A stretch of DNA of 55,238 bases from a bacterium (lineage in GTDB: Bacteria; UBA10199; JACPAL01; GCA-016699445), in NCBI GenBank assembly GCA_035454885.1, contig DATIGE010000038.1:1-55238 (forward strand), in the 5' to 3' direction. Of the stretch, positions 1 to 35,168 are shown one piece after another. The notes under the pieces were generated by a model. That model saw only the letters and a program-made list of their open reading frames with translations. It did no database searches and was not told the origin of the DNA. Position 1 is the first letter of the stretch, and each line of letters opens with the position of its first letter. A program made the translations under genes and the position numbers.

Positions 1-19
1 TGGGAAGGAGAGCGCAACG

Positions 20-676
20 ATGAGACCTCAAGAAATGGACGAGCTTCTCGAACGCGTCTGGACGGAGAGGGAGAAGGGGAGGGACGCCCGCGAGGACGTT
101 CTGACCGCCTTGCCGGCCGGGGAGGGCGATTGCTGGCTGAAGAAGCTCGAGCAGGAACGGCTTGTGAGCGAAACCGGGGGACGCGTCCGCCTGACCCCCG
201 CGGGCGAAAAGGAGGCGTCGGGGATCATTCGACGGCACCGCCTGACGGAACGCCTCTTCGCGGACGTCTTCAATACGCGCGAGGAGACTTGGGAGCGTGA
301 GGCCTGCGAGCTCGAACATCCGACGGTCCTGACGGAGGAGGCGGTGAATGCGATCTGCGCCTTCCTGGGGCACCCGCCCACCTGCCCCCATGGGAGGCCG
401 ATCCCCCCGGGACCGTGCTGTGCGGAATTCCGTCTGGAAGTGAAATCCTTCGTCATCCCGCTGACCGAGGCGCGCATCGCCTCCCGTTACCGGATCGTCT
501 TCATCACGCCCAAGAGCGGACTTCGCCTGGACCGTCTGGCGGTCCTGGGAATCCTTCCCGGGAGCGAGATTCGCATCCATCAGAAGAAGCCGGCGTACGT
601 CCTCCGCATTGGAGAGACGGACGTCGCCCTGGATCACGAAATCGTGCGGGACATCTACGTCAAGGAAGCGCCCTGA
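20..676 (+). CDS. DtxR/MntR-family metalloregulator with C-terminal FeoA-like domain
   Basis: A 218-residue metal-dependent repressor of the DtxR/IdeR/MntR type, expected to bind DNA when loaded with Fe(II) or Mn(II). The N-terminal third is a winged helix. The metal-binding and dimerisation part shows H73-x3-E77 (RHRLTERLF) and C96-x2-E99-H100 (ACELEH), matching the DtxR ancillary and primary sites. From about residue 135 to the end lies an SH3/FeoA-like domain (LAVLGILPGSEIRIHQ). The start is set by GGAAGGAG ending nine bases before ATG. The last codons (YVKEAP, stop) lie inside a 25-bp sequence repeated 1.1 kb downstream, so whatever inserted there left the reading frame intact. Targets cannot be read from the window. 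The family call is solid; the metal is not determined. Confidence 0.88.
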   Translation: MRPQEMDELLERVWTEREKGRDAREDVLTALPAGEGDCWLKKLEQERLVSETGGRVRLTPAGEKEASGIIRRHRLTERLFADVFNTREETWEREACELEHPTVLTEEAVNAICAFLGHPPTCPHGRPIPPGPCCAEFRLEVKSFVIPLTEARIASRYRIVFITPKSGLRLDRLAVLGILPGSEIRIHQKKPAYVLRIGETDVALDHEIVRDIYVKEAP

Positions 677-682
677 CGGCGG
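658..682 (+). repeat. 25-bp direct repeat, left copy
   Basis: Perfect 25-bp match to 1776-1800, beginning CGTCAAGGAAGCG and ending CCTGACGGCGG. With one mismatch the match extends three bases further left. This copy contains the last codons and stop of the metalloregulator gene. Confidence 0.9.
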
Positions 683-976
683 GCTAGGCGGTTCCCTTCG
701 CCAAGGCGCTGCGCGCGTCTTCGATGTCGGATGGATAAGCCGATCAGCGTGAAAGCGACGGGGAAGGAGAGCTTGGCCGAGCGCCTAGCTGGAATCGGCG
801 GATTTGTCAGCCTGACTCTCGAAACGGGGAGGGTGCTGGGCCGTCAAGCCAAAGGTCTATAGGCCCTATTGAGATTCGAGTGGGCATAACAAATGCAACC
901 GATTCATTTTCATTTCGTTTCATCGAAACATTCTCTTGATTTTGTCGATAAAAGCACATTCACGGAGGCTCACGTC

Positions 977-1744
977 ATGCATCCATCGATCGTTTCTTTT
1001 CCTCTCACGGCGGCCGTCGGCCTGCCGATAGCCGTGGATGTTTTGGTCCGTATGGCTCCGGATGTGAGCGACAGGATTGTCGACGGAGAGGTGGGGAGAT
1101 TGAGGGCCGTCCTGGACGGCCTTTCTCTTCCGCGTTCTTTGCATGCCCCGGCGCTCGTCGAATTCGCGGTCAGTCTCTCATTTTCGCAGAGAATGCTCTT
1201 CAGCGAGGAAAAGGTGCAGGATCTTTTGGGGCGGATGAGGTCCCCTCTTTATCACATCCGGGGAGAAGCCCCCGAAGAAAAGACCCATTGGGGCCCTCTG
1301 CTCCCCGAGGCCCCCAACCATTATACGGGACAGTGGATCGGTGATGCGTCTTCTCCTGCGATGGCGGACTTCCTCCTTGAGAAAAACGAAAGCCGTTGGC
1401 TTGCGAAGGACTATTACGGATTTCTTCGCCGACGAATCGTCGAACTCAAGGCGGACTTTGAGGGGCTCCGGTGGGCGTTCGATTCCGAAAAGGACACCCA
1501 CGTTCGCGTGCGTCTGAGCCGGGCGACGGATTCAGCCATCTATAACGGGACCAGACTGGACCATGCCGCCTCTCAAATCTGCCGGGCTTTCGGATTTAGA
1601 GTCCTCATACATGAATCTTGGATGAACTTCGACTGGCTGGCCGATATTGAAGCGAAAGGTTCTCGAGGCGAATTGATGTCTCGCTCCCAGTTCGAGCAAG
1701 TCCTTCAATATGTGGATTGTAAGAGGAAACTTTACTCCTTGTAG
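977..1744 (+). CDS. Hypothetical protein inside the repeat-bounded segment
   Basis: A 255-residue protein I do not recognise. I chose the ATG at 977 over the longer frame from 893 because GGAGG at 964-968 is well placed for it. The N-terminus (MHPSIVSFPLTAAVGL) has no charge and carries prolines, the same style as the orphan proteins further along. The rest is mixed and soluble-looking, with an aromatic centre (HYTGQWIGD, LAKDYYGFLRR) and no membrane segment. A near-palindrome GTTTC-ATC-GAAAC at 917-929 lies 47 bp before the start. Upstream sequence is more AT-rich than its neighbours, which fits transfer. No function is proposed. Confidence 0.65.
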   Translation: MHPSIVSFPLTAAVGLPIAVDVLVRMAPDVSDRIVDGEVGRLRAVLDGLSLPRSLHAPALVEFAVSLSFSQRMLFSEEKVQDLLGRMRSPLYHIRGEAPEEKTHWGPLLPEAPNHYTGQWIGDASSPAMADFLLEKNESRWLAKDYYGFLRRRIVELKADFEGLRWAFDSEKDTHVRVRLSRATDSAIYNGTRLDHAASQICRAFGFRVLIHESWMNFDWLADIEAKGSRGELMSRSQFEQVLQYVDCKRKLYSL

Positions 1745-1775
1745 TCGCAGTATCTCAGCCCTTCGGCGTCAGCTG

Positions 1776-1800
1776 CGTCAAGGAAGCGCCCTGACGGCGG
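1776..1800 (+). repeat. 25-bp direct repeat, right copy
   Basis: Second perfect copy of the 658-682 sequence, lying in non-coding DNA 31 bp after the stop codon of the gene at 977-1744 and 27 bp before the 3' end of the peroxidase gene. Sequence on either side of the copies differs. Confidence 0.9.
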
Positions 1801-1827
1801 ATGCCGCCGCGCCTCATCCCGAGTTTC

Positions 1828-2754
1828 TCAGGCTCTTCCCAGAGATTTCAATGACTCCAGCGACGGGGCGAAGAAGGTCGCGCCGGAGACCGCGCAGGTG
1901 TGGTCCATCAGGTGATCGTGCAAGCCGTCGGCGTTCGTGCCGATCATTCGTGCCAGCATTTTTTCCGGAATCGACAAGTCCTTCGTGTAGGCGATGAAGA
2001 AGAGGCCCGCCTCCGTGACGGTCCCGTAGGGGAAGCTGTGGCGGACGATTTCCAACTCCCGACCCTCCTCCTCGACCACGACCCGGCTGATGTGGGCGGT
2101 CGGCGGTTTGAGTTTTTCCGGCAGTTCCTTGCTGTCCCGCTTCCGCCGTCCGATCACCTTCTCTTGTTCCTTGTCGGAGAGGTGCGACCAGCTCTCCAGG
2201 TTGTGGACATAGCGCTGGGTGAAGACATAACTCCCGCAGGCGAAACCGGGATCTTCCTTTCCGATCAGCGCCGCCGCCGCTCGATGCTTTCCCTTCGGAT
2301 TTTCGGTGCCGTCGATGAAACCCGTGATGTCTCGTGAATCGAGGTAGCGGAACCCGTGAACCTCCTCCATGACCTCTACGGCGCCGCCCAGCCGGTTCCG
2401 GATCCGGCGCGCCAGCTCAAAGTTGAGATCGTGACGTCCGGACAGGAGATGAAGCAGCAAATCCCCTCCGGTTGCCGGGGCCCGCCTTCCTTCCGCTTCG
2501 ATCGCGCGAAAGGGGCGGAGGCCGGACGGGCGCCGGTTGGGTGAGATCCGGTCCCAGAAATCGGAGCCGAACCCGACGGTGCAGACGGTCCTGGCCCTGG
2601 GATCGATCTTGGCGACGTTCTTTACGTAAAAGGGGATTTCGCCGGCGACCCGAGCGACGGATGACGAGTTCGTCGATGGGTCGTCGACCCGCAAGATGAT
2701 AAAGAGGGCGCTCCGGCCGGGTTCGGGGAGAATGCCGGGTTGAGGGTGGAGCAT
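1828..2754 (-). CDS. Dyp-type heme peroxidase, YfeX-like
   Basis: A 308-residue dye-decolorising peroxidase, close to the usual length of the YfeX/DypB branch. The distal motif GFIDGTENP is at 145-153. The likely proximal heme ligand is His221 (TAHISR), and the distal arginine is R238 in IVRHSFPYG, both as in YfeX. These enzymes oxidise porphyrinogens and other substrates with H2O2. No signal peptide is visible, so it is probably cytoplasmic. It is followed by fumarase on the opposite side of a 33-bp gap and may share regulation with the metal and redox genes nearby. The start is the first ATG; its ribosome site is weak. Confidence 0.92.
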   Translation of the reverse strand: MLHPQPGILPEPGRSALFIILRVDDPSTNSSSVARVAGEIPFYVKNVAKIDPRARTVCTVGFGSDFWDRISPNRRPSGLRPFRAIEAEGRRAPATGGDLLLHLLSGRHDLNFELARRIRNRLGGAVEVMEEVHGFRYLDSRDITGFIDGTENPKGKHRAAAALIGKEDPGFACGSYVFTQRYVHNLESWSHLSDKEQEKVIGRRKRDSKELPEKLKPPTAHISRVVVEEEGRELEIVRHSFPYGTVTEAGLFFIAYTKDLSIPEKMLARMIGTNADGLHDHLMDHTCAVSGATFFAPSLESLKSLGRA

Positions 2755-2787
2755 GGTGATCGCTGCCTTTCCGCCGAGATCTAACGT

Positions 2788-4182
<1,395 letters not shown>

Positions 4183-17340: not shown

Positions 17341-19683
17341 TTACGGCACCTTGTGAACGGGTTCGATGGACACCGGCATGCCGAGGGAAAGACCCATATC
17401 GGCGAGGACTTCTTCGATTTCCATCAGACTTTTTCGGCCGAAGTTTTTCGTTTTCAGCAGCATTGATGCGGATTTGCCCAGGAGCTCTCCCAGATATTTG
17501 ATGTTCGAGTTCTTCAAATAGTTCTTCGCCCTGCCCTCAAAAGGCAGTTTCGCGACCAAGACGAAAAACAGGTCGTACGCCAGTGTGAGAGGTTCGCCCT
17601 CCGGCGGCCTGGGCATTCGCCGGATCAAATCCGAGTAGATGGCGACCTCCAAACGGTCGGTGATCCCTTTGATGATTTGACCGATTCGTGATCTCTCGAC
17701 CGCATACTCCTCCGCCAGGGTCTGAAGGGAGATGGGCTCGCCGCTCATGAAGGCCCGTTGAAAGATTTCAAGCCGTCGGCCTTCCAGCGGCGGTTGAGCG
17801 AGGTGGCTCACGATGACCGCCCTCAATTCCTCGTCGGATACTGTTGTCGGGGCGAGGTCTCTGGCGCCTTGAAAAAGGCGTTCGGTCAACGGCTCCGGCC
17901 CGACCCCTTTCGTAAAGCGGCCGGCCAAGATCTCCTCCAAGCGCTCGACGTCGCCGGACCATTCGAGAAGGGACGGCCCGACCGTTTCGTCGACCTCCTC
18001 CTGCTGCGTCCGGATCTCCTCGACCGCCGTCTTCCAGAGACGGAGCCAAAGTTCCACCGCGGCTTCCTTTCCCCCCAAAAACCGCTGCAGCCTCTCCATT
18101 TGAATCAGGTGGGTCGGGATCACGCCCAGTTCGAAGGCGGCGACGGTCTTGGGGTGTATCCCTGTTTTTTTTGCAACGCCGGAGAGACCACCCTCGCGTT
18201 CGAGGATCCCCGCGAAGAGCCTCTGCCACTCTTGGCTCAATGGGACCCGGGCGAAGAGCGGCGAGACCCTGCCCGCGCGGATGCACTGCGCGCGCTCGCG
18301 ACGTTGCCGAGACTTCGTCTCCAAGCCGCGGAAGGAACCCTTGAGCGAGCGGGTCTCGAAAACGCTCTTGGGGTAGTCGACCAACCCGGCCAGCCGGGGC
18401 AGGTTGGCAAAGGAGCCTTGGAGTCCCCAGGCGAGTTCCAAGACGGACAGGTCGGCAAGAGTCATCCCCTCCAAAACGCCCCAGGCCCGCCCCGTCCTCT
18501 GGCCGAAGAGCTCCAGGCTGTCGGTCTGGTAGGTGTGAAAGACGGCGTCGGCGCCGGTGGCGCGGAAACCCCGGGAGATCATGCGGACGGAGATCAAGGC
18601 CCCGCCCCGTTCCTTCCAGAGCTGCAGCTCAGCGTTGACGCGGTACCCGTCCATGTCCGTCCCGGAATGCACGAAACGGACAAAGCCCTGTCCGTGCCTT
18701 GCCTCCAGCGCCTTCTTGAGCAATCGCCCGTGCCGGATGGTGGGGACGAAGACGAGGGAGCGTCGCGACGCGGAATGGATCTTTTGGTCGAAGAGCTCGG
18801 CCAGGAACTCCGCGTTCGCCGGCGTGGCCTTCCACCAGACCATCCGCTCGCCGCCCTTCGAGGTCATCTTCTGGCTTTCGATGTGGACGCGCTGGCGCTC
18901 GCCCCTCATGTGGCGGATCCAGCCCGCCTCCATGGCCTCCAAGAGGGACAGGCTCCCGCTGATCTTGTAGCCGTCCAGTCCCGCACCTGTCCCGGAAAAG
19001 CCGATGACGAGGCCATTGCCGGCGACGGGGACGAGGAGTCCGCCTTCCTCCTTGGAGGCCCGCCGGGCCAGACCGAAATGCTCGAGGATCCTGCCGACCG
19101 ACGGCGATTGAGTCGCGTAGGCCTCGTCGAGGATGACCACGGTCTTGGGCCCCGCGGGAAAAAGGTCGAGGTTCCTCACGAGGGCCAAGGTGCCGGTGAC
19201 GGTCACGGACTTCGGCGTCTTGACCAGGCCGTCGTACCGCCCGACTTCGCCCGGCGGAAGGCCCTCCGCCAGGTCCTCCATCATCTGTCCCGTGATGACG
19301 CGCCCGGAGGTGAGGATCAGAACGCGGAGGTCGTCGCCCATCTCCTGACGGAGCATGTGCACGATGGGGCCGGTCAGCCGGCTCTTGCCCGTCTGCATGG
19401 GGGAGGAGAGACCGAGCCACGGGGAGGCCTGGGCGCGGACGTCGTTCCTCAATCCCTCGACCATCCCCTCTTGGTAGGCGCGAAGTTTCCAGGCACCCAT
19501 CGCGGCTTCCGCCGGTCCCAGGATCCTCCCTCCCGCCGGGCCCGAAGGGCCGTCGACGCTGCAAAGCCCCATGGGGGTGAAGGAGCCCGTTTCAAGACAG
19601 AGGGGAAGATGGACGAAGGACGCGTCCGAGAGGGGAGGCCACGGGGCGGGGACGGCGGCCGGATATCGCAACGTCGAGATCAC
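17341..19683 (-). CDS. SF2 helicase-like ATPase fused to sigma region 4-like HTH and RNA polymerase alpha-CTD-like domain
   Basis: A 780-residue protein, in order: an N-terminal tail; a RecA-like domain with Walker A SPMQTGKS (about 94-101), Walker [10 protein letters not shown] (about 182-190) and motif III-like GFSGTG; a second RecA-like domain with [10 protein letters not shown] and the arginine-finger motif [10 protein letters not shown] (about 394-402); an Xre-like HTH ([20 protein letters not shown]); a helix-turn-helix like sigma-70 region 4 ([20 protein letters not shown]); and a full alpha-CTD-like domain at about 710-772 ([34 protein letters not shown]). I know no named family with this order. 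The parts suggest an ATP-driven translocase that docks on promoter DNA or RNA polymerase. It starts four bases after the gene at 19687. Confidence 0.85.
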
Positions 19684-24608: not shown

Positions 24609-25295
24609 TTATCGCGCCAATTGAAGAGGGCGATGGGGGATGGCGGGAGCGGTCTTCGTAGGGGCCAAGAAGGGGAGGCTCGCCGGCTCGGGTTCCCCGC
24701 CGCCGAGACCCGAGAGTTGCGGCTGGTCGAAGTTTTCCGCCGCTCCCTTCACGGAATCCGTGGGGGTTTCGGAAGGCTTGACGGAGTGCTCTCCGACCTC
24801 ATAGGTCATTGGAGCGTCTTCCCCCCAGGTTCCTTCGGTAGGGGCCACCAGCGCCGGGGAATCGACCGAATCTTCAGGGCCGGTGCCGGACTCCGGACAT
24901 TTCGGAGAAAGCCCCGGCACCTCGAAGCAGGCGGTGACCGGCTCTCCGTTGATCTTCAAGACTCCGGAGACGATGTTGCCGCCGCCGTCGACGATCGTGG
25001 AGACTTCCGCATCTTCTCCATCCTCAAAGCCGGCCTCGAGATTCAAGGCCATCCCTTCCCGCCGGTACGGGACCGCCACGGACTCGGCGTCCGCTCCCGA
25101 GGAGGTGCGCGCGACGACCGCGGTCGATTCGTCCACAAAGGAGATATCATAGACCGCCGCGGACGTGACGACCCGGATGGATTTGACGTCGATGTCCGGA
25201 TTGCCCGCCTCGATGCCCGGACTCGGCCGGGTGTTGCAACTGGCGGCCGCAAAAAGGGAGAGCCCCAGAAGGGCGATTGCGATGCGGCTTTTCAT
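24609..25295 (-). CDS. Lipoprotein with post-Cys 'PG-GNP' motif, TIGR02147 module 1
   Basis: A 228-residue lipoprotein: the signal MKSRIAIALLGLSLFAAASC ends at lipobox Cys20. The mature N-terminus has PSPGIEAGNPDI. The second lipoprotein in the window (33922) has YPGVVVGNPD at the same place, while the rest differs. A beta-rich middle (VTSAAVYDISFVDESTAVVA) is followed by a Pro/Glu/Ser-rich linker. No retention signal is evident. The start overlaps the TIGR02147 stop by four bases (ATGA), so the two are translationally coupled. The pairing of a regulator-like protein with a surface lipoprotein is repeated in module 2. Confidence 0.82.
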   Translation of the reverse strand: MKSRIAIALLGLSLFAAASCNTRPSPGIEAGNPDIDVKSIRVVTSAAVYDISFVDESTAVVARTSSGADAESVAVPYRREGMALNLEAGFEDGEDAEVSTIVDGGGNIVSGVLKINGEPVTACFEVPGLSPKCPESGTGPEDSVDSPALVAPTEGTWGEDAPMTYEVGEHSVKPSETPTDSVKGAAENFDQPQLSGLGGGEPEPASLPFLAPTKTAPAIPHRPLQLAR

Positions 25296-26131
25296 GCGGC
25301 CTCCCCGAGTTTGCTGAGTTTGAAGAGTTGGAGATTGATGTGTCCGACGAAATTCTTTGGCCTTCCGTCCTCCTGTTCGAGGAGGGAATGCAGCTTCTTG
25401 CGGAATTTTTGGATCTCTTCCTTCGCTTTCTGAAATCCGTCCTCCGACATGACGACGGTCAAGGCGGAGAATTCCCGGTCGTGGACCTTTTCCCGCAGGA
25501 CCGTCCGCGCGGCGAGCTCGCTCATCTGGACGTGAAAGTTGGTGACCGAAAGCGACTTCACCTCGTCCGGCGTCGTCAGCATGAACTCCTTCCGCCGGAG
25601 ACCCTCCCGTGGGTCCTCTTCGATGAGGTCCAGGGCCGTGAGGTCGGCGATCGCTTTTTTAAGATCGCGAAGCCCGATCTCAGGATGGATGCGGGCCTGA
25701 ATCCATTCCAGTCCCTTGGGGCCGTCCGAAGGCACGCGGATCAATTCGAGAATGGCGACGTAATACCAGTGCGAAAACAGGGAGAACTGCGCGGCGGTAA
25801 CGGGCTTGGCGGCGAGGAAGCGCTTGTTCTGGGTCAGTTCGCGGAACCAGCGGTTCTTTTCCGCGCTGGTCGCGGCCTGGTTGAACTTGACGAGGCACTC
25901 GAAGTACCTCCGCTCTGGCTCGCTCAGGCGGAAGCCCTGGGCGATCATCCGGATGCCTTTGTCCGCGAGGTTCCTCTTCCCGTCTATGACGAGCTTGAGG
26001 AACCCGGACGACTTCACCCCCGCCAGCCGGTTGAATGAGCGGTAGGAGAAGAGCGGGTTCTTCCGTTTCATCTCCGCGAATCGGTCGCGCAGAAACGCCC
26101 GGTAGCCGGTGTAGTCGTAGATCGAGTTCAT
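25292..26131 (-). CDS. TIGR02147/DUF4423 family protein, module 1
   Basis: A 279-residue protein of TIGR02147 (Pfam DUF4423), a family expanded in Fibrobacter and found in Bdellovibrio-type genomes, thought to be regulatory. Signature regions seen: SIYDYTGYRAFLRDRF at the N-terminus, an HTH-like block (SYRSFNRLAGVKSSGFLKLV) and a middle FRLSEPERRYFECLVKFNQA. It is about 60% like the second copy at 34320 by eye. ATG 26131 is preferred because GAGG precedes it; ATG 26146 is possible. A palindrome lies 43 bp upstream (26175-26190), which is consistent with autoregulation. It is coupled to the lipoprotein gene. Confidence 0.85.
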   Translation of the reverse strand: MNSIYDYTGYRAFLRDRFAEMKRKNPLFSYRSFNRLAGVKSSGFLKLVIDGKRNLADKGIRMIAQGFRLSEPERRYFECLVKFNQAATSAEKNRWFRELTQNKRFLAAKPVTAAQFSLFSHWYYVAILELIRVPSDGPKGLEWIQARIHPEIGLRDLKKAIADLTALDLIEEDPREGLRRKEFMLTTPDEVKSLSVTNFHVQMSELAARTVLREKVHDREFSALTVVMSEDGFQKAKEEIQKFRKKLHSLLEQEDGRPKNFVGHINLQLFKLSKLGEAA

Positions 26132-27622: not shown

Positions 27623-27696
27623 AATAATCTCTGTCGTTTCTTATCGCCGCGAAGGAACGATAGGTGCGGGGGGAAGACACCGGTGGGGCGGAAATC

Positions 27697-27712
27697 ATTT
27701 TCTTTTGAAAAG
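27697..27712 (-). promoter_or_regulatory. Palindrome TTTTC-TTTT-GAAAA
   Basis: Exact five-base arms, 74 bp before the start at 27622. Positions 27691-27711 are identical, base for base, to 32211-32231. Confidence 0.7.
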
Positions 27713-27718
27713 GAGACT

Positions 27719-27994
27719 TTAGGGGAGATTCCGGTAGACGTCCTTCCGATGTCCGATCTTGATGACGAGGATCAGGAGGACGGCGCCGCGCACTTCGTAG
27801 ACGATCCGGTAGTCTCCCACGCGCACCCGGTAGAGGGACTCCGCGCCTTTCAGTTTTTTGAATCTCAATAGTTCTGAAAAGGGATTGGTGGAGAGGAGTT
27901 GAAGGGCCTCGAGGACGCGGGGCTGGATTTTCGCGGGGAGCCCGTCGAACTCCTTCCTCGCGCTCTTGACGAACTCGATGCGGTAGGACGGCAT
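27719..27994 (-). CDS. RelE/ParE-superfamily toxin
   Basis: A 91-residue toxin of the RelE/StbE type. The diagnostic blocks are present: YRIEFVKSARKEFDGLP at the N-terminus, then YRVRVGDYRIVYEV and a C-terminal ILVIKIGHRKDVYRN. RelE members cleave mRNA at the ribosome; ParE relatives attack gyrase, and this sequence, with its RxGDYR and HR-x-DVY residues, looks more RelE-like. It overlaps the antitoxin by one base (TGATG), so translation is coupled. The pair lies between palindrome-controlled orphan genes and the kinase operon, perhaps stabilising this region. Confidence 0.9.
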   Translation of the reverse strand: MPSYRIEFVKSARKEFDGLPAKIQPRVLEALQLLSTNPFSELLRFKKLKGAESLYRVRVGDYRIVYEVRGAVLLILVIKIGHRKDVYRNLP

Positions 27995-28221
27995 CAGGAC
28001 TTGCGGCTCTTCCTTCGGGCGGAGAGGATGTCCTCCAGCGGGACCGTCTCCTCGGACTTCCGCTGGCGGTAGGCCTCAAGATCCATTTCATCCTCGATCT
28101 GCTCGATCAGCGCCTGCTCGACCAAGTGGCGGAGCTTAAGCCCCCTCCGCCGGCAGAACTCCACCGCGGCCTTCTTGACCTGGGCGTCGATATCCGTGGA
28201 GAGGGTGACGGTTTCGCCCAT
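27994..28221 (-). CDS. Antitoxin of the RelE-type pair
   Basis: A 75-residue partner of the toxin. The N-terminal half looks like a ribbon-helix-helix DNA-binding unit (TVTLSTDIDAQVKKAAVEF, then KLRHLVEQALIEQIED), while the charged C-terminal tail (EETVPLEDILSARRK) would wrap the toxin. ATG 28221 gives the RHH at the right place; a TTG at 28236 could extend it by five residues. Neither has a strong ribosome site. As in other pairs, autoregulation of the operon is expected but not visible. Confidence 0.83.
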   Translation of the reverse strand: MGETVTLSTDIDAQVKKAAVEFCRRRGLKLRHLVEQALIEQIEDEMDLEAYRQRKSEETVPLEDILSARRKSRKS

Positions 28222-28258
28222 GACTTTATAATCCAAGATTTACCAAGGAAAAACAAGT

Positions 28259-29557
28259 CTATTCCCGGTTCCTGACCAGTTTTCGGATCCAACCCGCCAA
28301 CAGAAGCAGGACGAAGACGAGAATCGAGTGCGATGCTTCGGGGCGTCGGGGTTTCAGGGCGTCCCATGCGACGATGACCTTGTCGGGGGCCGGAGGCGAA
28401 TGCCGGGCAATTTCCCCGGAGGCGGCTCTTGGCGTCCAGTTGGGCGGCGGCGGGGCGTCTTGCGTTTTGACCGTGCGGTCGGCGTCGGGATTCGCGATGG
28501 CTTGGGGGATCGCCTCGACGGAGCGCAGCTGAATGACGGGTACCGCCTTCGGATGAAACCCGGCCATCCCCGGCGCTTGATGCCGGATCGTCTCGGCTTC
28601 CGCGAGGGGTATGGGGCCGGTGATCCTCACCGTCTCCGCGTCCGAAATGGGACTCGCCGGAACCGGCGGACTGGCCGGATTCAGAATATCATTCACATGT
28701 TTTCGAATCTCGTCCGGCCTGGGCCTCTCCTTCGGTTTCTTGGCCAGCATTTTCAGGACCAGGTCCTGCAGGACGGGAGACCGGCATTCGGTCATCGGCC
28801 TCGGAATGCCGTGAAAGTGCCAGGCGACGAAATCCTCCGGCTCGCTCAAATGGTCCGGGAAGGGATAACGTCCCTCGATCATCAGGTAGGTCATGACGCC
28901 CAAGGCGTAGACGTCCGACGCGAGTCCCGGCCTGCCCAAACATTGCTCCGGCGCGATATAACGGAACGTCCCGACGGCGATTCCGGCCTCGGTCAGTTTT
29001 TTTCTCGGGCCGATTCCCTTTTCGTCCGCGTCAAAGGCGCGGGCGATGCCGAAATCCATGACCTTCAGCCTCCAGGGATCTTCGCCGCGGATAAAGATGT
29101 TTTCCGGCTTGATGTCGCGATGCACCAAAGCGCGCGATTGCGCATAGACCAAGGCGCCGCAGATTTGAGACACGATCGCGGCGGTTTCCTCGGCCGCGAG
29201 CCGGCCGTAGGGCCGGCCGCCCAAGACCTCGTCCAAGGTCCTCCCCGTGAGCAGTTCCATGACGATGAAGGGGCCGAATCTTACGTCGCAGCCGTGATCC
29301 AGGGTCCGGACGATGTGGGGGTGGTCGAGGCCTTCTGCGACTGCGATCTCCCTTTCGAAACGCGCGGCCATCTTTTCGGAGCGGTCGATCAAGAGCTTGA
29401 TGGCCACGGGCGGATGGTCCGCCGCCAGGCGATGGCCGCGGTAGACGGCGCCCATGCCGCCCTCGGCGATCCTGGTAATGCCTTGATAGCGATGTCCGGA
29501 ATGAGCGGGTCCGAGGACGAAGGGAAAGGCCGGCAACATGACTGAGGTGATGGGCAT
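28259..29557 (-). CDS. Tail-anchored Ser/Thr protein kinase (PknB-type)
   Basis: A 432-residue Hanks-type kinase. It has the glycine loop IAEGGMGAVYRG, the lysine in VAIKLL, the catalytic loop LVHRDIKPENIF, DFG in VMDFGIARAF, and APE in YIAPEQC; all key residues are intact. The regulatory region from about 290 is Pro-rich and the chain ends in a hydrophobic helix (SILVFVLLLLAGWIRKLV) that would anchor it in the inner membrane. There are no PASTA repeats. The short leader MPITSVMLPAFPFVL is of the cluster style. It is the last gene of the operon 32133-28259, six bases after the FGE-fold gene, so it probably acts with those products. Confidence 0.93.
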   Translation of the reverse strand: MPITSVMLPAFPFVLGPAHSGHRYQGITRIAEGGMGAVYRGHRLAADHPPVAIKLLIDRSEKMAARFEREIAVAEGLDHPHIVRTLDHGCDVRFGPFIVMELLTGRTLDEVLGGRPYGRLAAEETAAIVSQICGALVYAQSRALVHRDIKPENIFIRGEDPWRLKVMDFGIARAFDADEKGIGPRKKLTEAGIAVGTFRYIAPEQCLGRPGLASDVYALGVMTYLMIEGRYPFPDHLSEPEDFVAWHFHGIPRPMTECRSPVLQDLVLKMLAKKPKERPRPDEIRKHVNDILNPASPPVPASPISDAETVRITGPIPLAEAETIRHQAPGMAGFHPKAVPVIQLRSVEAIPQAIANPDADRTVKTQDAPPPPNWTPRAASGEIARHSPPAPDKVIVAWDALKPRRPEASHSILVFVLLLLAGWIRKLVRNRE

Positions 29558-29563
29558 AGTGAT

Positions 29564-30196
29564 TCAGCGGGCGCAGCGGAAGGCGTAGGCGGCCGGCTCG
29601 TCGCCTTTGAAGGCCTCGAATGTATGATAGCCCCCGTAAACGAGACCCCCTTCGACCCACTGCGGGAGGTGGGCGACGGAGCGGGCGCCCGCAGGACCCA
29701 CGTAGGCGAGACAACCGAGCGTGAGCTGCGATCCTAAGCACGGCGACTCCCGCGTCCCCCAGGGCGTGACGCGCCCGTCGGTGCCCCGGGCGATGCGCTC
29801 GAACTCATCGGGCGTCGGCAGGCGTTTGCCGAGCTTCGCGCAATAAGCTTGGGCCTTCTCATAGGTGACGATGGCCAGTCCCTCGATATACCGGTTGGCC
29901 TCCGGATCGGCGAATTGGGGGGGCAATAGGCGGTCCGGCATCCCATACTCGCCGCGCGTGACGAGATTGCGGTCGATGTAAAACGCGTCGAGGGCGATGG
30001 AAGAGCGGCGGTCGCGAAAGGACCGGTCGCAACCGGGCTCGACCTTGGCCGTGTTGCAGTCCGCTCCTGCGATGAATGTACCGGCCGGCACAAAAACTTC
30101 GCGCAATTCCGATGCCGGCGCCGCCGGTCCGCCGCAGCCGAATTCGGCGGCGAGACCCGTCAAGAAGGCCGATGAGGCGAACGTGGCGAGTCTCAT
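29564..30196 (-). CDS. Exported FGE-sulfatase-fold (SUMF1-like) protein
   Basis: A 210-residue protein of the formylglycine-generating-enzyme fold: EVFVPAGTFIAGADC, FYIDRNLVTRGEYG, AQAYCAKLGKRLPTPDEFE and ARGTDGRVTPWGT are typical blocks. An N-terminal signal (MRLATFASSAFLTGLAAEF, then GCGG) may be a lipobox, but the -3 residue is unusual. The paired catalytic cysteines of true FGE enzymes are not evident, so this is more likely a binding domain of the kind often found beside Hanks kinases. ATG 30196 overlaps the preceding stop by four bases. Confidence 0.82.
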   Translation of the reverse strand: MRLATFASSAFLTGLAAEFGCGGPAAPASELREVFVPAGTFIAGADCNTAKVEPGCDRSFRDRRSSIALDAFYIDRNLVTRGEYGMPDRLLPPQFADPEANRYIEGLAIVTYEKAQAYCAKLGKRLPTPDEFERIARGTDGRVTPWGTRESPCLGSQLTLGCLAYVGPAGARSVAHLPQWVEGGLVYGGYHTFEAFKGDEPAAYAFRCAR

Positions 30197-32133
30197 GGTT
30201 CGCCCCACTTCCTCGGTAGGTGGTCGGTCTTCACTTGCAACCCCAATTCGCCGAGCACTGTGGTCCTCAATAATCGCTCCCGCAGCGCGATCGCCCCCAA
30301 TCTCTGCCTTTCGGGAGATGGCCGTCCGGTATAGCCGCCCATTCGCGAGAGCCAGTCGGACTCCCGGCCCGCCGGCGCCGTGTCGTCCTCGAAGACGACG
30401 TCGTCCCCGTCGAAGACGACGACGGCCTTGAGGACGGCCAGACGCGGGTCTTTAAAATGCACGCGGAGGATGACGCCCTTTTGCAGAAGCCGGCCGAGTT
30501 CGGTCGTGCTCAAACTCTCGGCCGTCGCGGGCGTGACGCCGTTCATCCTCGCGCGGGTGATCTTGGCGGACTCCAGCGGGTTGAAGGAGTCGAGGGTGAT
30601 TTCCAGATCGAGGAGGCCATCGTAACGGGGCAAAGGGTCGTGCTCCCTCGGCAGGTTCAAGGCGCTTCGGAGATCGACTTCGCCCGAGGCGAGCGAGCCC
30701 AGATCGGTTTGGGCGAGGAAGCGCATCCAAGCGAAGCGCGACGCGTCCGCCTGTTCCTGAACGGCCGTAGCGGAGGTGGTCCGGAGCGTTTCGGCGATCG
30801 CGTTCATGGCGTCGGCGGCCTCCTCCGGGTGCTCGCTTCGGAGCAATGGCCGGAGCGCAATCAGGGCGCGGACCAGCGCCTCGCGCCGTTCGTCACGCGA
30901 GTTGACCAAGGCATTCTGTTGGAGGGCGAAGAAACGAATGCGCGGCTGGTCGGCGTCCTCCGTGCCGGGCCGTGTGGGTCCTTGAAACAGCGCGTCCCGA
31001 ACCGAATGACCCGCGCTTCGGATGCCGCCTTTGATCATGTCGCCCACAAGCGCCCCCACAGCCGTTGTTTTTTCGTTCCGGCTGAGAAGCAGTTTGGCCA
31101 CTTGGGCCGCCTGTCCGGACAGCCCGTAGGTCGCCATGTCCAGGGCGTACATCGCGAGGTCGAAGAGTAGGGTCGAACTCGCATTCGGAAGCTTTTTTCG
31201 GAACGCCTCGGCTTCCTCCGCCGCCACGCCGATACCGATCTCGCGCCGCTCATTGAAATATTCGAGGGCGTTCTTCGCTCGCAGGAAGGCGTTGTCGAGT
31301 TTGTTCAAGGCGTTCTGCGGGTACGGCCTGGCGATCTCTTGATCGGCGTCGATCCGTGCGAGGACCTCGGTGGCCCGCGCGGCATCGGCCTTTTTCGTTT
31401 TGGCTTCCTCTTCTTCCTTCAAGCGCCTGGCCGCGACGACGGAGGGAGGGTCCTCGCCGTGGACGTAGGCCGCTCCCCGGATCGGGATTTCGACCGTCTT
31501 GTGCGCCCAGCCCGTGTAGGGCTCCCACGTCGCATTGACGGTCAGTTTCGCGTTCAACGGCCCGCTTTTGGCCGGTTGGTAGACGAGGGGAATCGGGATG
31601 CCGGGGTCTTCGCGGCTCGGCCGCAGGCGATTGGAACTCCTATGGCCCAACTGAATTTCATGACTGCCCGCGAGCAGCGCATCGACATAGGCGCTGCCGG
31701 TTCCGTGAAGATTGTAGACGTGAACGTTATGACGGTTAACCTCGCCGACGGGAATTTCACCGAAATCGACTTCGGAAGGCGCGGCCAGGCGGACGTCTTC
31801 GACCGCCGGAGCCGCGGCCGCCTGAGAATTCTGCCGAGCGCCGGTTTCGAGATGCAGGCCGAAGGGGTCGTCATGCGCAGCGGTGGTTTGCGCAGGGGAT
31901 GCCGGTTCGGTCAGGTAGTTGCCGCTCGGGACCTCGCCGGATCCGGGGATGCGCGAGGTCAGCGTGACCTTTCCGGGGGCGATCCGCCGTTCGCTTTGTC
32001 TCTCGCTCGGCGTTCCGCTTCCGGCCAATTCGGATCTGTAGTCCTTGACGCACAACGCGTTCCCGTCCGGAGGAGGAAGGGGATCGAAGGCCTGAGTGAA
32101 AACGCGCGATAGAGGAAAGTTCGATAAAATCAT
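30193..32133 (-). CDS. Large orphan protein with ASH/MSP-like Ig domain
   Basis: A 646-residue protein. Residues about 115-225 resemble an ASPM-SPD2-Hydin or MSP-type Ig domain (PSEVDFGEIPVGEVNRHNVH, then a second strand set), followed by a charged helix (ARRLKEEEEAKTKKADAAR) that may form a coiled coil, a helical body and a beta-rich C-terminus. The start is uncertain: ATG 32133 (MILSNFPLSRVF) fits the family style and places the palindrome 83 bp upstream, while ATG 32169 is 12 codons longer. First gene of the FGE-fold/kinase operon, overlapping the next gene by four bases; possibly a kinase substrate. Confidence 0.75.
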   Translation of the reverse strand: MILSNFPLSRVFTQAFDPLPPPDGNALCVKDYRSELAGSGTPSERQSERRIAPGKVTLTSRIPGSGEVPSGNYLTEPASPAQTTAAHDDPFGLHLETGARQNSQAAAAPAVEDVRLAAPSEVDFGEIPVGEVNRHNVHVYNLHGTGSAYVDALLAGSHEIQLGHRSSNRLRPSREDPGIPIPLVYQPAKSGPLNAKLTVNATWEPYTGWAHKTVEIPIRGAAYVHGEDPPSVVAARRLKEEEEAKTKKADAARATEVLARIDADQEIARPYPQNALNKLDNAFLRAKNALEYFNERREIGIGVAAEEAEAFRKKLPNASSTLLFDLAMYALDMATYGLSGQAAQVAKLLLSRNEKTTAVGALVGDMIKGGIRSAGHSVRDALFQGPTRPGTEDADQPRIRFFALQQNALVNSRDERREALVRALIALRPLLRSEHPEEAADAMNAIAETLRTTSATAVQEQADASRFAWMRFLAQTDLGSLASGEVDLRSALNLPREHDPLPRYDGLLDLEITLDSFNPLESAKITRARMNGVTPATAESLSTTELGRLLQKGVILRVHFKDPRLAVLKAVVVFDGDDVVFEDDTAPAGRESDWLSRMGGYTGRPSPERQRLGAIALRERLLRTTVLGELGLQVKTDHLPRKWGEP

Positions 32134-32216
32134 GGGATGGTTTTTTGTCCTTTGCCGCATCCATCGCATGATCCGCGCGGGAGGTTGCAGGAATGTGAAG
32201 GACGGCGGGAGAAATC

Positions 32217-32232
32217 ATTTTCTTTTGAAAAT
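32217..32232 (-). promoter_or_regulatory. Palindrome ATTTTC-TTTT-GAAAAT
   Basis: Exact arms, 83 bp before the preferred start 32133 and 54 bp before the divergent gene at 32287. Shares 21 identical bases with the site at 27691-27711. Confidence 0.7.
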
Positions 32233-33921: not shown

Positions 33922-34323
33922 TCAATTCTCCTGGACCATCATGATGCTGTCCGGGAGTGTCCCCTCCGGTTGGGCGTACTCAGGCCTGGAAGGCGTGGGA
34001 GGCGGGTCCTCCAGATCCGGCTCGCCGATCCGGTCGCCGCCCGGGACTTCCTGATCGCCCGCGTCCGCGGTGGTCTCCTCCTCGGGTTCCTTGTCGACCG
34101 ACCCCGGAGTCGAGGGGTCGTCGCCGGAGGACGGATCGTCGGAAGGCGGGGGCTGATAGGAGCCGCCGTTCGGGAAATCAAAGTCGGGGCTCACTCCGGG
34201 CGTGCCCGGGACCGACGTTCCCTCCTCATCGGGATTGCCGACCACGACGCCGGGATAGGTCTCGGCCAGGCAGCCGGCGAGAAGAGCGAGGATCAGGATG
34301 GGGGCGATGCGCAGGACGCTCAT
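33922..34323 (-). CDS. Lipoprotein with post-Cys 'PG-GNP' motif, TIGR02147 module 2
   Basis: A 133-residue lipoprotein with lipobox ALLAGC (Cys18) and then ETYPGVVVGNPD, matching the start of the other lipoprotein at 24609. The rest is a Pro/Asp/Glu/Ser-rich, low-complexity, acidic chain without fold (PPPSDDPSSGDDPSTPG). This suggests a surface-exposed spacer or a shrunken relative. It is coupled to the TIGR02147 gene by a four-base overlap, the same arrangement as in module 1. Confidence 0.78.
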   Translation of the reverse strand: MSVLRIAPILILALLAGCLAETYPGVVVGNPDEEGTSVPGTPGVSPDFDFPNGGSYQPPPSDDPSSGDDPSTPGSVDKEPEEETTADAGDQEVPGGDRIGEPDLEDPPPTPSRPEYAQPEGTLPDSIMMVQEN

Positions 34324-35168
34324 GACAGGGTTTCCTTTTCGCTCAGGCGGAAGAGCTGCAGATTGAAGTGGCCGACAAAATCCTTGGGGTCCTCGTTCTC
34401 CTGTTCGAGAATGGAATGCAGGTGGTCCCGGAACTTGCGGATCTCCTCACGCGCCCTTTGAAAGGCCTTTTCGGAGGTCACGACCGTGAGCGTGGTGAAT
34501 TCCCGCTCGCGGGCCTTCTGCTCCGCCACCGCCTTGGCGGCGAGCTGGCTCATCTGGGCATGGAAATTCACGGCCGAAAGCGAGCGCACGGCGTCCTCTG
34601 TCGCGAGCATTGCCTCGCTCCTGACGAGTCCCTCCTCCTTGTCGTGCGCCAGGAGATCGAGCCGGACGAGCTCCGCAACCGCCGCCTTGACCTCCTTCAA
34701 TTCCACCTCGGGACGGAGTCTTTTCTGAATCCAGCAGGCGTCCTTGGGAAGGTCCGATGGGATCCGGACAAGCTCCAGGATCGCGACATAATACCAATGT
34801 GAGAGCAGGCGGTACTGGGCCGCGGCCAAGGGTTTGGCCGCGAGCCAGCGTTTGTTCTTGGCGAGTTCGCGGAAATACCGGTCTTTTTCCTCGTGGATCT
34901 TGGCCTGGTTGAATTTGACGAGGCACTCGAAATATTTCCGCTCCGGCTCGGAGAGGCGGAAGCCGCGGGCGATCATCCCGATGCCTTCGTCGGAGACGTT
35001 CCGCTTGCCGTCCATGACGAGCTTCAAGAAGCTGGTCGACCGGGCGCCCGCGAGCCGACTGAACGACTGGTAGGAAAAGAGGGGATTCCTCTTCTTAATC
35101 TCCAGGAACCGGTCCTTCAGGAAACCCCGGTAGTCCAGGTAGTCATAGATGGAAGGGTTCGGCGGCAT
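34320..35168 (-). CDS. TIGR02147/DUF4423 family protein, module 2
   Basis: A 282-residue paralog of the protein at 25292. The N-terminus MPPNPSIYDYLDYRGFLKDRF and blocks SYQSFSRLAGARSTSFLKLV and FRLSEPERKYFECLVKFNQA are nearly the same in both. GGAAAAG precedes the ATG. A palindrome ATTTTC-GGCT-GAAAAT (35177-35192) begins only eight bases before the start codon, overlapping the ribosome-site region, a position expected for a self-repressing operator. Upstream DNA is AT-rich with a TATACAT-like -10. The family function is inferred to be transcriptional control. Confidence 0.87.
   Translation of the reverse strand: MPPNPSIYDYLDYRGFLKDRFLEIKKRNPLFSYQSFSRLAGARSTSFLKLVMDGKRNVSDEGIGMIARGFRLSEPERKYFECLVKFNQAKIHEEKDRYFRELAKNKRWLAAKPLAAAQYRLLSHWYYVAILELVRIPSDLPKDACWIQKRLRPEVELKEVKAAVAELVRLDLLAHDKEEGLVRSEAMLATEDAVRSLSAVNFHAQMSQLAAKAVAEQKAREREFTTLTVVTSEKAFQRAREEIRKFRDHLHSILEQENEDPKDFVGHFNLQLFRLSEKETLS

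What the first reader, a model, noticed from the sequence alone, without database searches (positions are those of the whole stretch)
658..1800. 1.1-kb segment with an orphan gene bounded by a 25-bp direct repeat at a gene end
The left copy is the final codons and stop of the metalloregulator gene, leaving it intact; the right copy is 31 bp after the orphan gene. This matches attL/attR-like duplication of a gene 3' end or a template-switch insertion. The segment has no recombinase. Its gene has the same N-terminal style as the distant orphan cluster, so cluster-type genes may travel as single cassettes.
Basis: partly seen in the sequence, partly recalled or inferred. Interest (0 to 1): 0.7.

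Follow-up and report, generated by a model that had tools for sequence, protein, structure and literature searches.

The report
Lone orphan gene between short repeats
In an uncultured bacterium, a 1.1-kb stretch carrying one gene of unknown ancestry sits just after a metal-sensing regulator gene and is bounded by two identical 25-letter copies of that gene's last bases; it is most likely a recently acquired one-gene insert, of a kind common in bacterial genomes, and no mobility enzyme was found for it.

Summary
CGTCAAGGAAGCGCCCTGACGGCGG lies at 658-682 and 1776-1800. It occurs twice in the 2.76-Mb MAG, with no further copy at up to 3 mismatches. Chance expectation for such a pair within 1.2 kb anywhere in the window is about 1.6e-7. 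The left copy is the last codons and stop of an intact DtxR/MntR-FeoA regulator gene; the right copy starts 31 bp after an orphan ORF (977-1744). The segment looks foreign: 55% GC against 62 +/- 3%, about the 1st percentile. The ORF has no detectable relative in any collection searched. Best reading: a recent one-gene insertion by short-homology or illegitimate recombination that duplicated 25 bp. An attL/attR origin is possible but unsupported: the only tyrosine recombinases found are two Xer-like proteins, no serine resolvase was found, and the repeat is not dif-like. The empty site could not be tested, because no genome closer than the same order is held. The "N-terminal style" holds only in a general sense: like the cluster orphans, the protein has a charge-poor N-terminus, and the genome encodes an injectisome-type T3SS, so it is a candidate secreted substrate. 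Travel as single cassettes is not shown.

The parts
20..676 (+). DtxR/MntR-type metalloregulator with C-terminal FeoA domain, intact
   Evidence: Pfam Fe_dep_repr_C 5e-24, FeoA 1e-11; 61-68% identical orthologues in four genomes of the same order
658..682 (+). left copy of the 25-bp direct repeat; final codons and stop of the regulator plus 6 bp
683..1775 (+). putative inserted segment (1,093 bp; 1,118 bp with one repeat copy), GC 55% against 62% for the contig
964..968 (+). GGAGG ribosome-binding site, 8 bp before the ATG at 977
   Evidence: sequence shown directly
977..1744 (+). orphan ORF, 255 aa, with charge-poor N-terminus; candidate secreted (T3SS) substrate by inference
   Evidence: no hit in Pfam, PHROGs, NCBIfam, PADLOC, PDB, own genome (9), 46 genomes of the phylum (35), GTDB contigs (13), viral contigs (14), phages, plasmids; N-terminus:
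1776..1800 (+). right copy of the 25-bp direct repeat, non-coding
1828..2754 (-). DyP-type peroxidase gene, convergent; would follow the regulator directly in the inferred empty site
   Evidence: Pfam Dyp_perox_C 6e-50, TIGR01413; no relative in the 5 other genomes of the order

Best explanation
A segment of about 1.1 kb carrying one orphan gene was acquired recently and joined at the 3' end of the metalloregulator gene. The most likely route is recombinase-independent: short-homology, homology-facilitated or template-switch illegitimate recombination, which left a 25-bp duplication of the regulator's last bases on the far side. Shown: the duplication, its uniqueness, the intact regulator, the foreign composition and the lack of relatives. 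Inferred: that it was an insertion rather than a more complex rearrangement, that it was recent (zero divergence over 25 bp), and the recombination route. The gene is probably a lineage-specific, possibly type-III-secreted protein, judged only from its charge-poor N-terminus and the presence of an injectisome locus in the genome.
For: Exact unique 25-bp repeat. Insert GC at about the 1st percentile of the contig. ORF third-position GC of 0.60-0.63 is among the lowest of 84 selected contig ORFs, mean 0.78. No homologue of the gene anywhere searched. No recombinase found other than two Xer-like ones. No terminal inverted repeats at the insert ends. Precedent: 10-18% of small variable segments in E. 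coli, S. aureus and S. pyogenes are flanked by direct repeats, mostly under 30 bp, and many of these segments are attributed to illegitimate recombination (PMC2884548). Injectisome genes sctV and sctJ-like are present, and the orphan has 2 charged residues in positions 2-25, like the cluster orphans.
Against: No empty site has been seen, so insertion is inferred. A 25-bp repeat is long for simple microhomology. The repeat ends exactly 6 bp past a stop codon and leaves the gene whole, which is also what att sites look like. The 5' part of the insert (683-850) has host-like GC, 64%. In PMC2884548 the repeat-flanked loci are often deletions between repeats, so an ancestral repeat-bounded segment is not excluded.
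Confidence: 0.55

Rival explanations
1. Site-specific integration: the two copies are attL and attR of a 1,118-bp non-autonomous element inserted at the regulator's 3' end by a tyrosine recombinase acting in trans or since lost.
For: Copies of a protein gene's 3' end with the gene kept intact are the classic att pattern (general knowledge). The 25-mer contains an imperfect dyad, CGTCAAGG-AAGCG-CCCTGACG, 7 of 8 pairs.
Against: The only tyrosine recombinases found in the MAG (completeness given as 100%) are Xer-like, and no serine resolvase was found. The 25-mer is no more dif-like than random sequence and is absent from IMG/VR. There is no phage or plasmid gene in the segment. A dyad as good occurs in 1.7% of random 25-mers.
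Confidence: 0.2
2. Transposition of a small element with a 25-bp target-site duplication.
For: A direct repeat flanks an insert.
Against: No terminal inverted repeats, no transposase in the segment, no other copy of the insert in the genome. A 25-bp duplication is far above the usual 2-14 bp (general knowledge).
Confidence: 0.04
3. No insertion: a local rearrangement of another kind, such as remnants of a larger duplication or a junction made when the DyP side arrived, left the repeat, and the orphan is resident.
For: The empty site cannot be shown. DyP is also missing from the other genomes of the order, so the right flank may itself be new. Similarity extends weakly to 31 bp.
Against: The insert, not the right flank, is compositionally odd. 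The orphan has no relatives.
Confidence: 0.15
4. Assembly artefact at a short repeat.
For: The genome is a fragmented MAG and no reads are available; the contig starts 657 bp before the left copy.
Against: Contig ends share a 141-bp overlap, as in k=141 assembly, so a 25-bp repeat should not by itself join unrelated sequence. Neither junction coincides with a contig end.
Confidence: 0.06

Closest known systems
Small variable segments flanked by short direct repeats in bacterial genomes (PMC2884548)
   Same: Short segment bounded by direct repeats under 30 bp, with no mobile-element genes
   Different: Presence/absence among strains was the criterion there and could not be tested here; the segment is longer (1.1 kb) than the 20-500 bp loci stressed there
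attL/attR-bounded islands at protein-gene 3' ends
   Same: Repeat is the gene's own 3' end and the gene remains intact
   Different: No integrase in the segment, only Xer-like recombinases found in the genome, one gene only
pdif (Xer) modules and integron cassettes
   Same: One-gene units without their own recombinase
   Different: Repeat not dif-like; no integron integrase found by the tyrosine-recombinase search; attC not specifically searched
Horizontally acquired single type-III effector genes
   Same: Lineage-specific low-GC gene with effector-like N-terminus in a genome with an injectisome
   Different: Secretion untested; no homology to any known effector

Membership tests
att-bounded integrative element | Direct repeats with one copy completing a target gene | tested here: met
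att-bounded integrative element | Site-specific recombinase in the element or genome other than Xer | tested here: not met
att-bounded integrative element | Related empty site or circular form | not testable with these tools
   No genome nearer than order; mntR neighbours all differ; no reads
Xer/pdif module | Flanking sites resemble dif | tested here: not met
   8-9 of 25 matches, reached by 54-92% of random 25-mers
Transposon or MITE | Terminal inverted repeats | tested here: not met
Repeat-flanked variable segment | Short direct repeats at both boundaries | tested here: met
Repeat-flanked variable segment | Presence/absence between strains | not testable with these tools
   no second genome of the genus or family held
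Type III secreted substrate | Injectisome in the genome | tested here: met
   SctV above its cut-off, 816 against 692 bits; SctJ-like 132 bits, below its 162 cut-off
Type III secreted substrate | Charge-poor N-terminus | tested here: met
   2 charged in residues 2-25; cluster orphans 0-4, other genes 2-14 (small hand-chosen sets)
Type III secreted substrate | Secretion shown | not testable with these tools
   needs experiment

The most novel reading that the evidence does not exclude
Orphan, possibly type-III-secreted genes of this lineage move as recombinase-free single-gene cassettes that land at gene 3' ends and duplicate about 20-25 bp, mobilised by a factor in trans. The 21-bp repeat bounding a kinase and a toxin-antitoxin-like pair at 27691-32231 would be a second instance.
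Probability: 0.08. Interest if true: 0.65.

Novelty: new member of a known kind. Interest (0 to 1): 0.3.

Why it matters
If insertion is confirmed, it is a clean example, recent by its repeat identity, of how a gene with no known relatives enters a genome one gene at a time, in a bacterium with an injectisome and many similar orphans. That would let the supply route of such genes be tested by population metagenomics.

Tried and rejected
Homology of the orphan to the cluster genes: alignment scores are at shuffle level. A transporter-like fragment or small ORF in 677-860: no Pfam match. Xer/dif site: not similar. Terminal inverted repeats: none. A bidirectional terminator hairpin across the right copy as evidence of an ancestral junction: fold z-score -0.8, not significant. 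Sigma-70 promoter: none found. Structure: AlphaFold on the single sequence gave pLDDT 33, so no fold search was made. Known RNA in 1-4000: none. tRNA in the window: none.

Full report
Observation. The 25-bp sequence CGTCAAGGAAGCGCCCTGACGGCGG is present at 658-682 and 1776-1800, 1,118 bp apart. It is the longest exact repeat in the window. A pattern search of the whole genome (2.76 Mb, 82 contigs) with up to 3 mismatches finds only these two copies. An independent-base estimate gives 1.6e-7 expected pairs at this spacing in the window. On the rest of the 126.8-kb contig, the only longer exact repeat is a 41-mer in the long repetitive ORFs at 61-75 kb.

Setting. The regulator (20-676) is a DtxR/MntR-type repressor with a FeoA domain. 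The gene after the right copy, convergent, is a DyP-type peroxidase (1828-2754), followed by a fumarase-type lyase gene. By its nearest named relatives the genome is an uncultured deltaproteobacterial MAG. Contig C38 starts at window position 1 with a 141-bp overlap to contig C58, which fits assembly at k=141 and argues against a chimera at a 25-bp repeat.

The segment. GC is 55% against 62 +/- 3% for equal windows of the contig, about the 1st percentile. Within it, 683-850 is 64%, 851-976 is 40% and the ORF is 55%. The ORF's third-position GC (0.60-0.63) is among the lowest of 84 selected ORFs, mean 0.78. The likely start is ATG 977 with GGAGG at 964-968, giving 255 aa. No relative was found in Pfam, PHROGs, NCBIfam, PADLOC or PDB sequences, in its own genome, in 46 genomes of the phylum, in GTDB species genomes, in IMG/VR, or in phage and plasmid records. 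The collection scans use short exact peptide patterns and would miss distant relatives.

Mechanism. For site-specific integration one wants a recombinase. The genome search finds two tyrosine recombinases: one beside topA and hslV/hslU, the other beside a trmB-like gene, both Xer-like (gene names are my reading of the translations). It finds no serine resolvase. The repeat does not resemble three dif sequences (dif sequences from memory). An imperfect dyad inside the repeat is matched by 1.7% of random 25-mers, so it is weak evidence. There are no terminal inverted repeats. What remains best supported is an illegitimate or short-homology insertion, as described for many small variable segments in bacteria, of which 10-18% are flanked by direct repeats mostly under 30 bp (PMC2884548). 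This is a choice by elimination and precedent. The crossover route was not observed.

Empty site. No genome of the same genus or family is held. The regulator is 61-68% identical in the nearest genomes. In each of the four examined the gene downstream differs, and DyP is missing from all five other genomes of the order. Insertion is therefore inferred from the repeat and composition, not shown by comparison.

N-terminal style. The orphan does not align to any other window ORF better than shuffled versions do. Yet it shares a general feature with the cluster genes of the window: 2 charged residues in positions 2-25, against 0-4 in 14 such genes and 2-14 in 14 others (Mann-Whitney p = 2e-5). These sets and starts were chosen by hand, partly with the style in view, so the p-value is only indicative. 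The genome encodes an injectisome: SctV scores 816 bits (cut-off 692; the FlhA model stays below its own cut-off), beside an SctJ-like lipoprotein (132 bits, below its cut-off of 162) and an FHA protein with weak SctD similarity. Depletion of charged residues and enrichment of Ser/Thr/Pro are features of type III N-terminal signals, and ORFans as a class can mimic them (PMC2669295). The gene is thus a candidate substrate, no more.

Cassettes. A second exact repeat, 21 bp, bounds 27691-32231 and also occurs only twice in the genome. It encloses a kinase gene and a small toxin-antitoxin-like pair (my reading). Both copies lie within about 40-80 bp upstream of likely starts of cluster-type genes, so a shared control element is as likely as an insertion boundary. 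This does not establish travel as single cassettes.

Verdict. A real, significant repeat around a foreign-looking orphan gene; most likely an ordinary short-repeat-bounded insertion; att-type mobility unproven; interest modest.

Noticed in passing
27691-27711 and 32211-32231: Exact 21-bp repeat GAAATCATTTTCTTTTGAAAA, only two copies in the genome with none at 1-3 mismatches, bounding a kinase gene and a toxin-antitoxin-like pair; each copy lies a short way upstream of a cluster-type gene.
   Followed up: partly
9714-33903: Run of genes, most without confident Pfam matches, with charge-poor N-termini, including a Ser/Thr kinase-domain protein (28262-29557) and a protein with an RNA polymerase alpha C-terminal domain (17344-19683); candidate type-III-secreted set. 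Similar-looking genes continue on the contig at about 99.9-110 kb.
   Followed up: partly
L056 (G000:C13:10001-30000): Injectisome-type secretion locus with SctV, an SctJ-like lipoprotein and an FHA protein with weak SctD similarity.
   Followed up: partly
25295-26131 and 34323-35168: Two TIGR02147-family paralogues flank the central part of the orphan region.
   Followed up: no
C38:61089-74833 (L048, L052): Two very long repetitive secreted-looking ORFs (about 1,498 and 3,091 codons) with many internal repeats.
   Followed up: no
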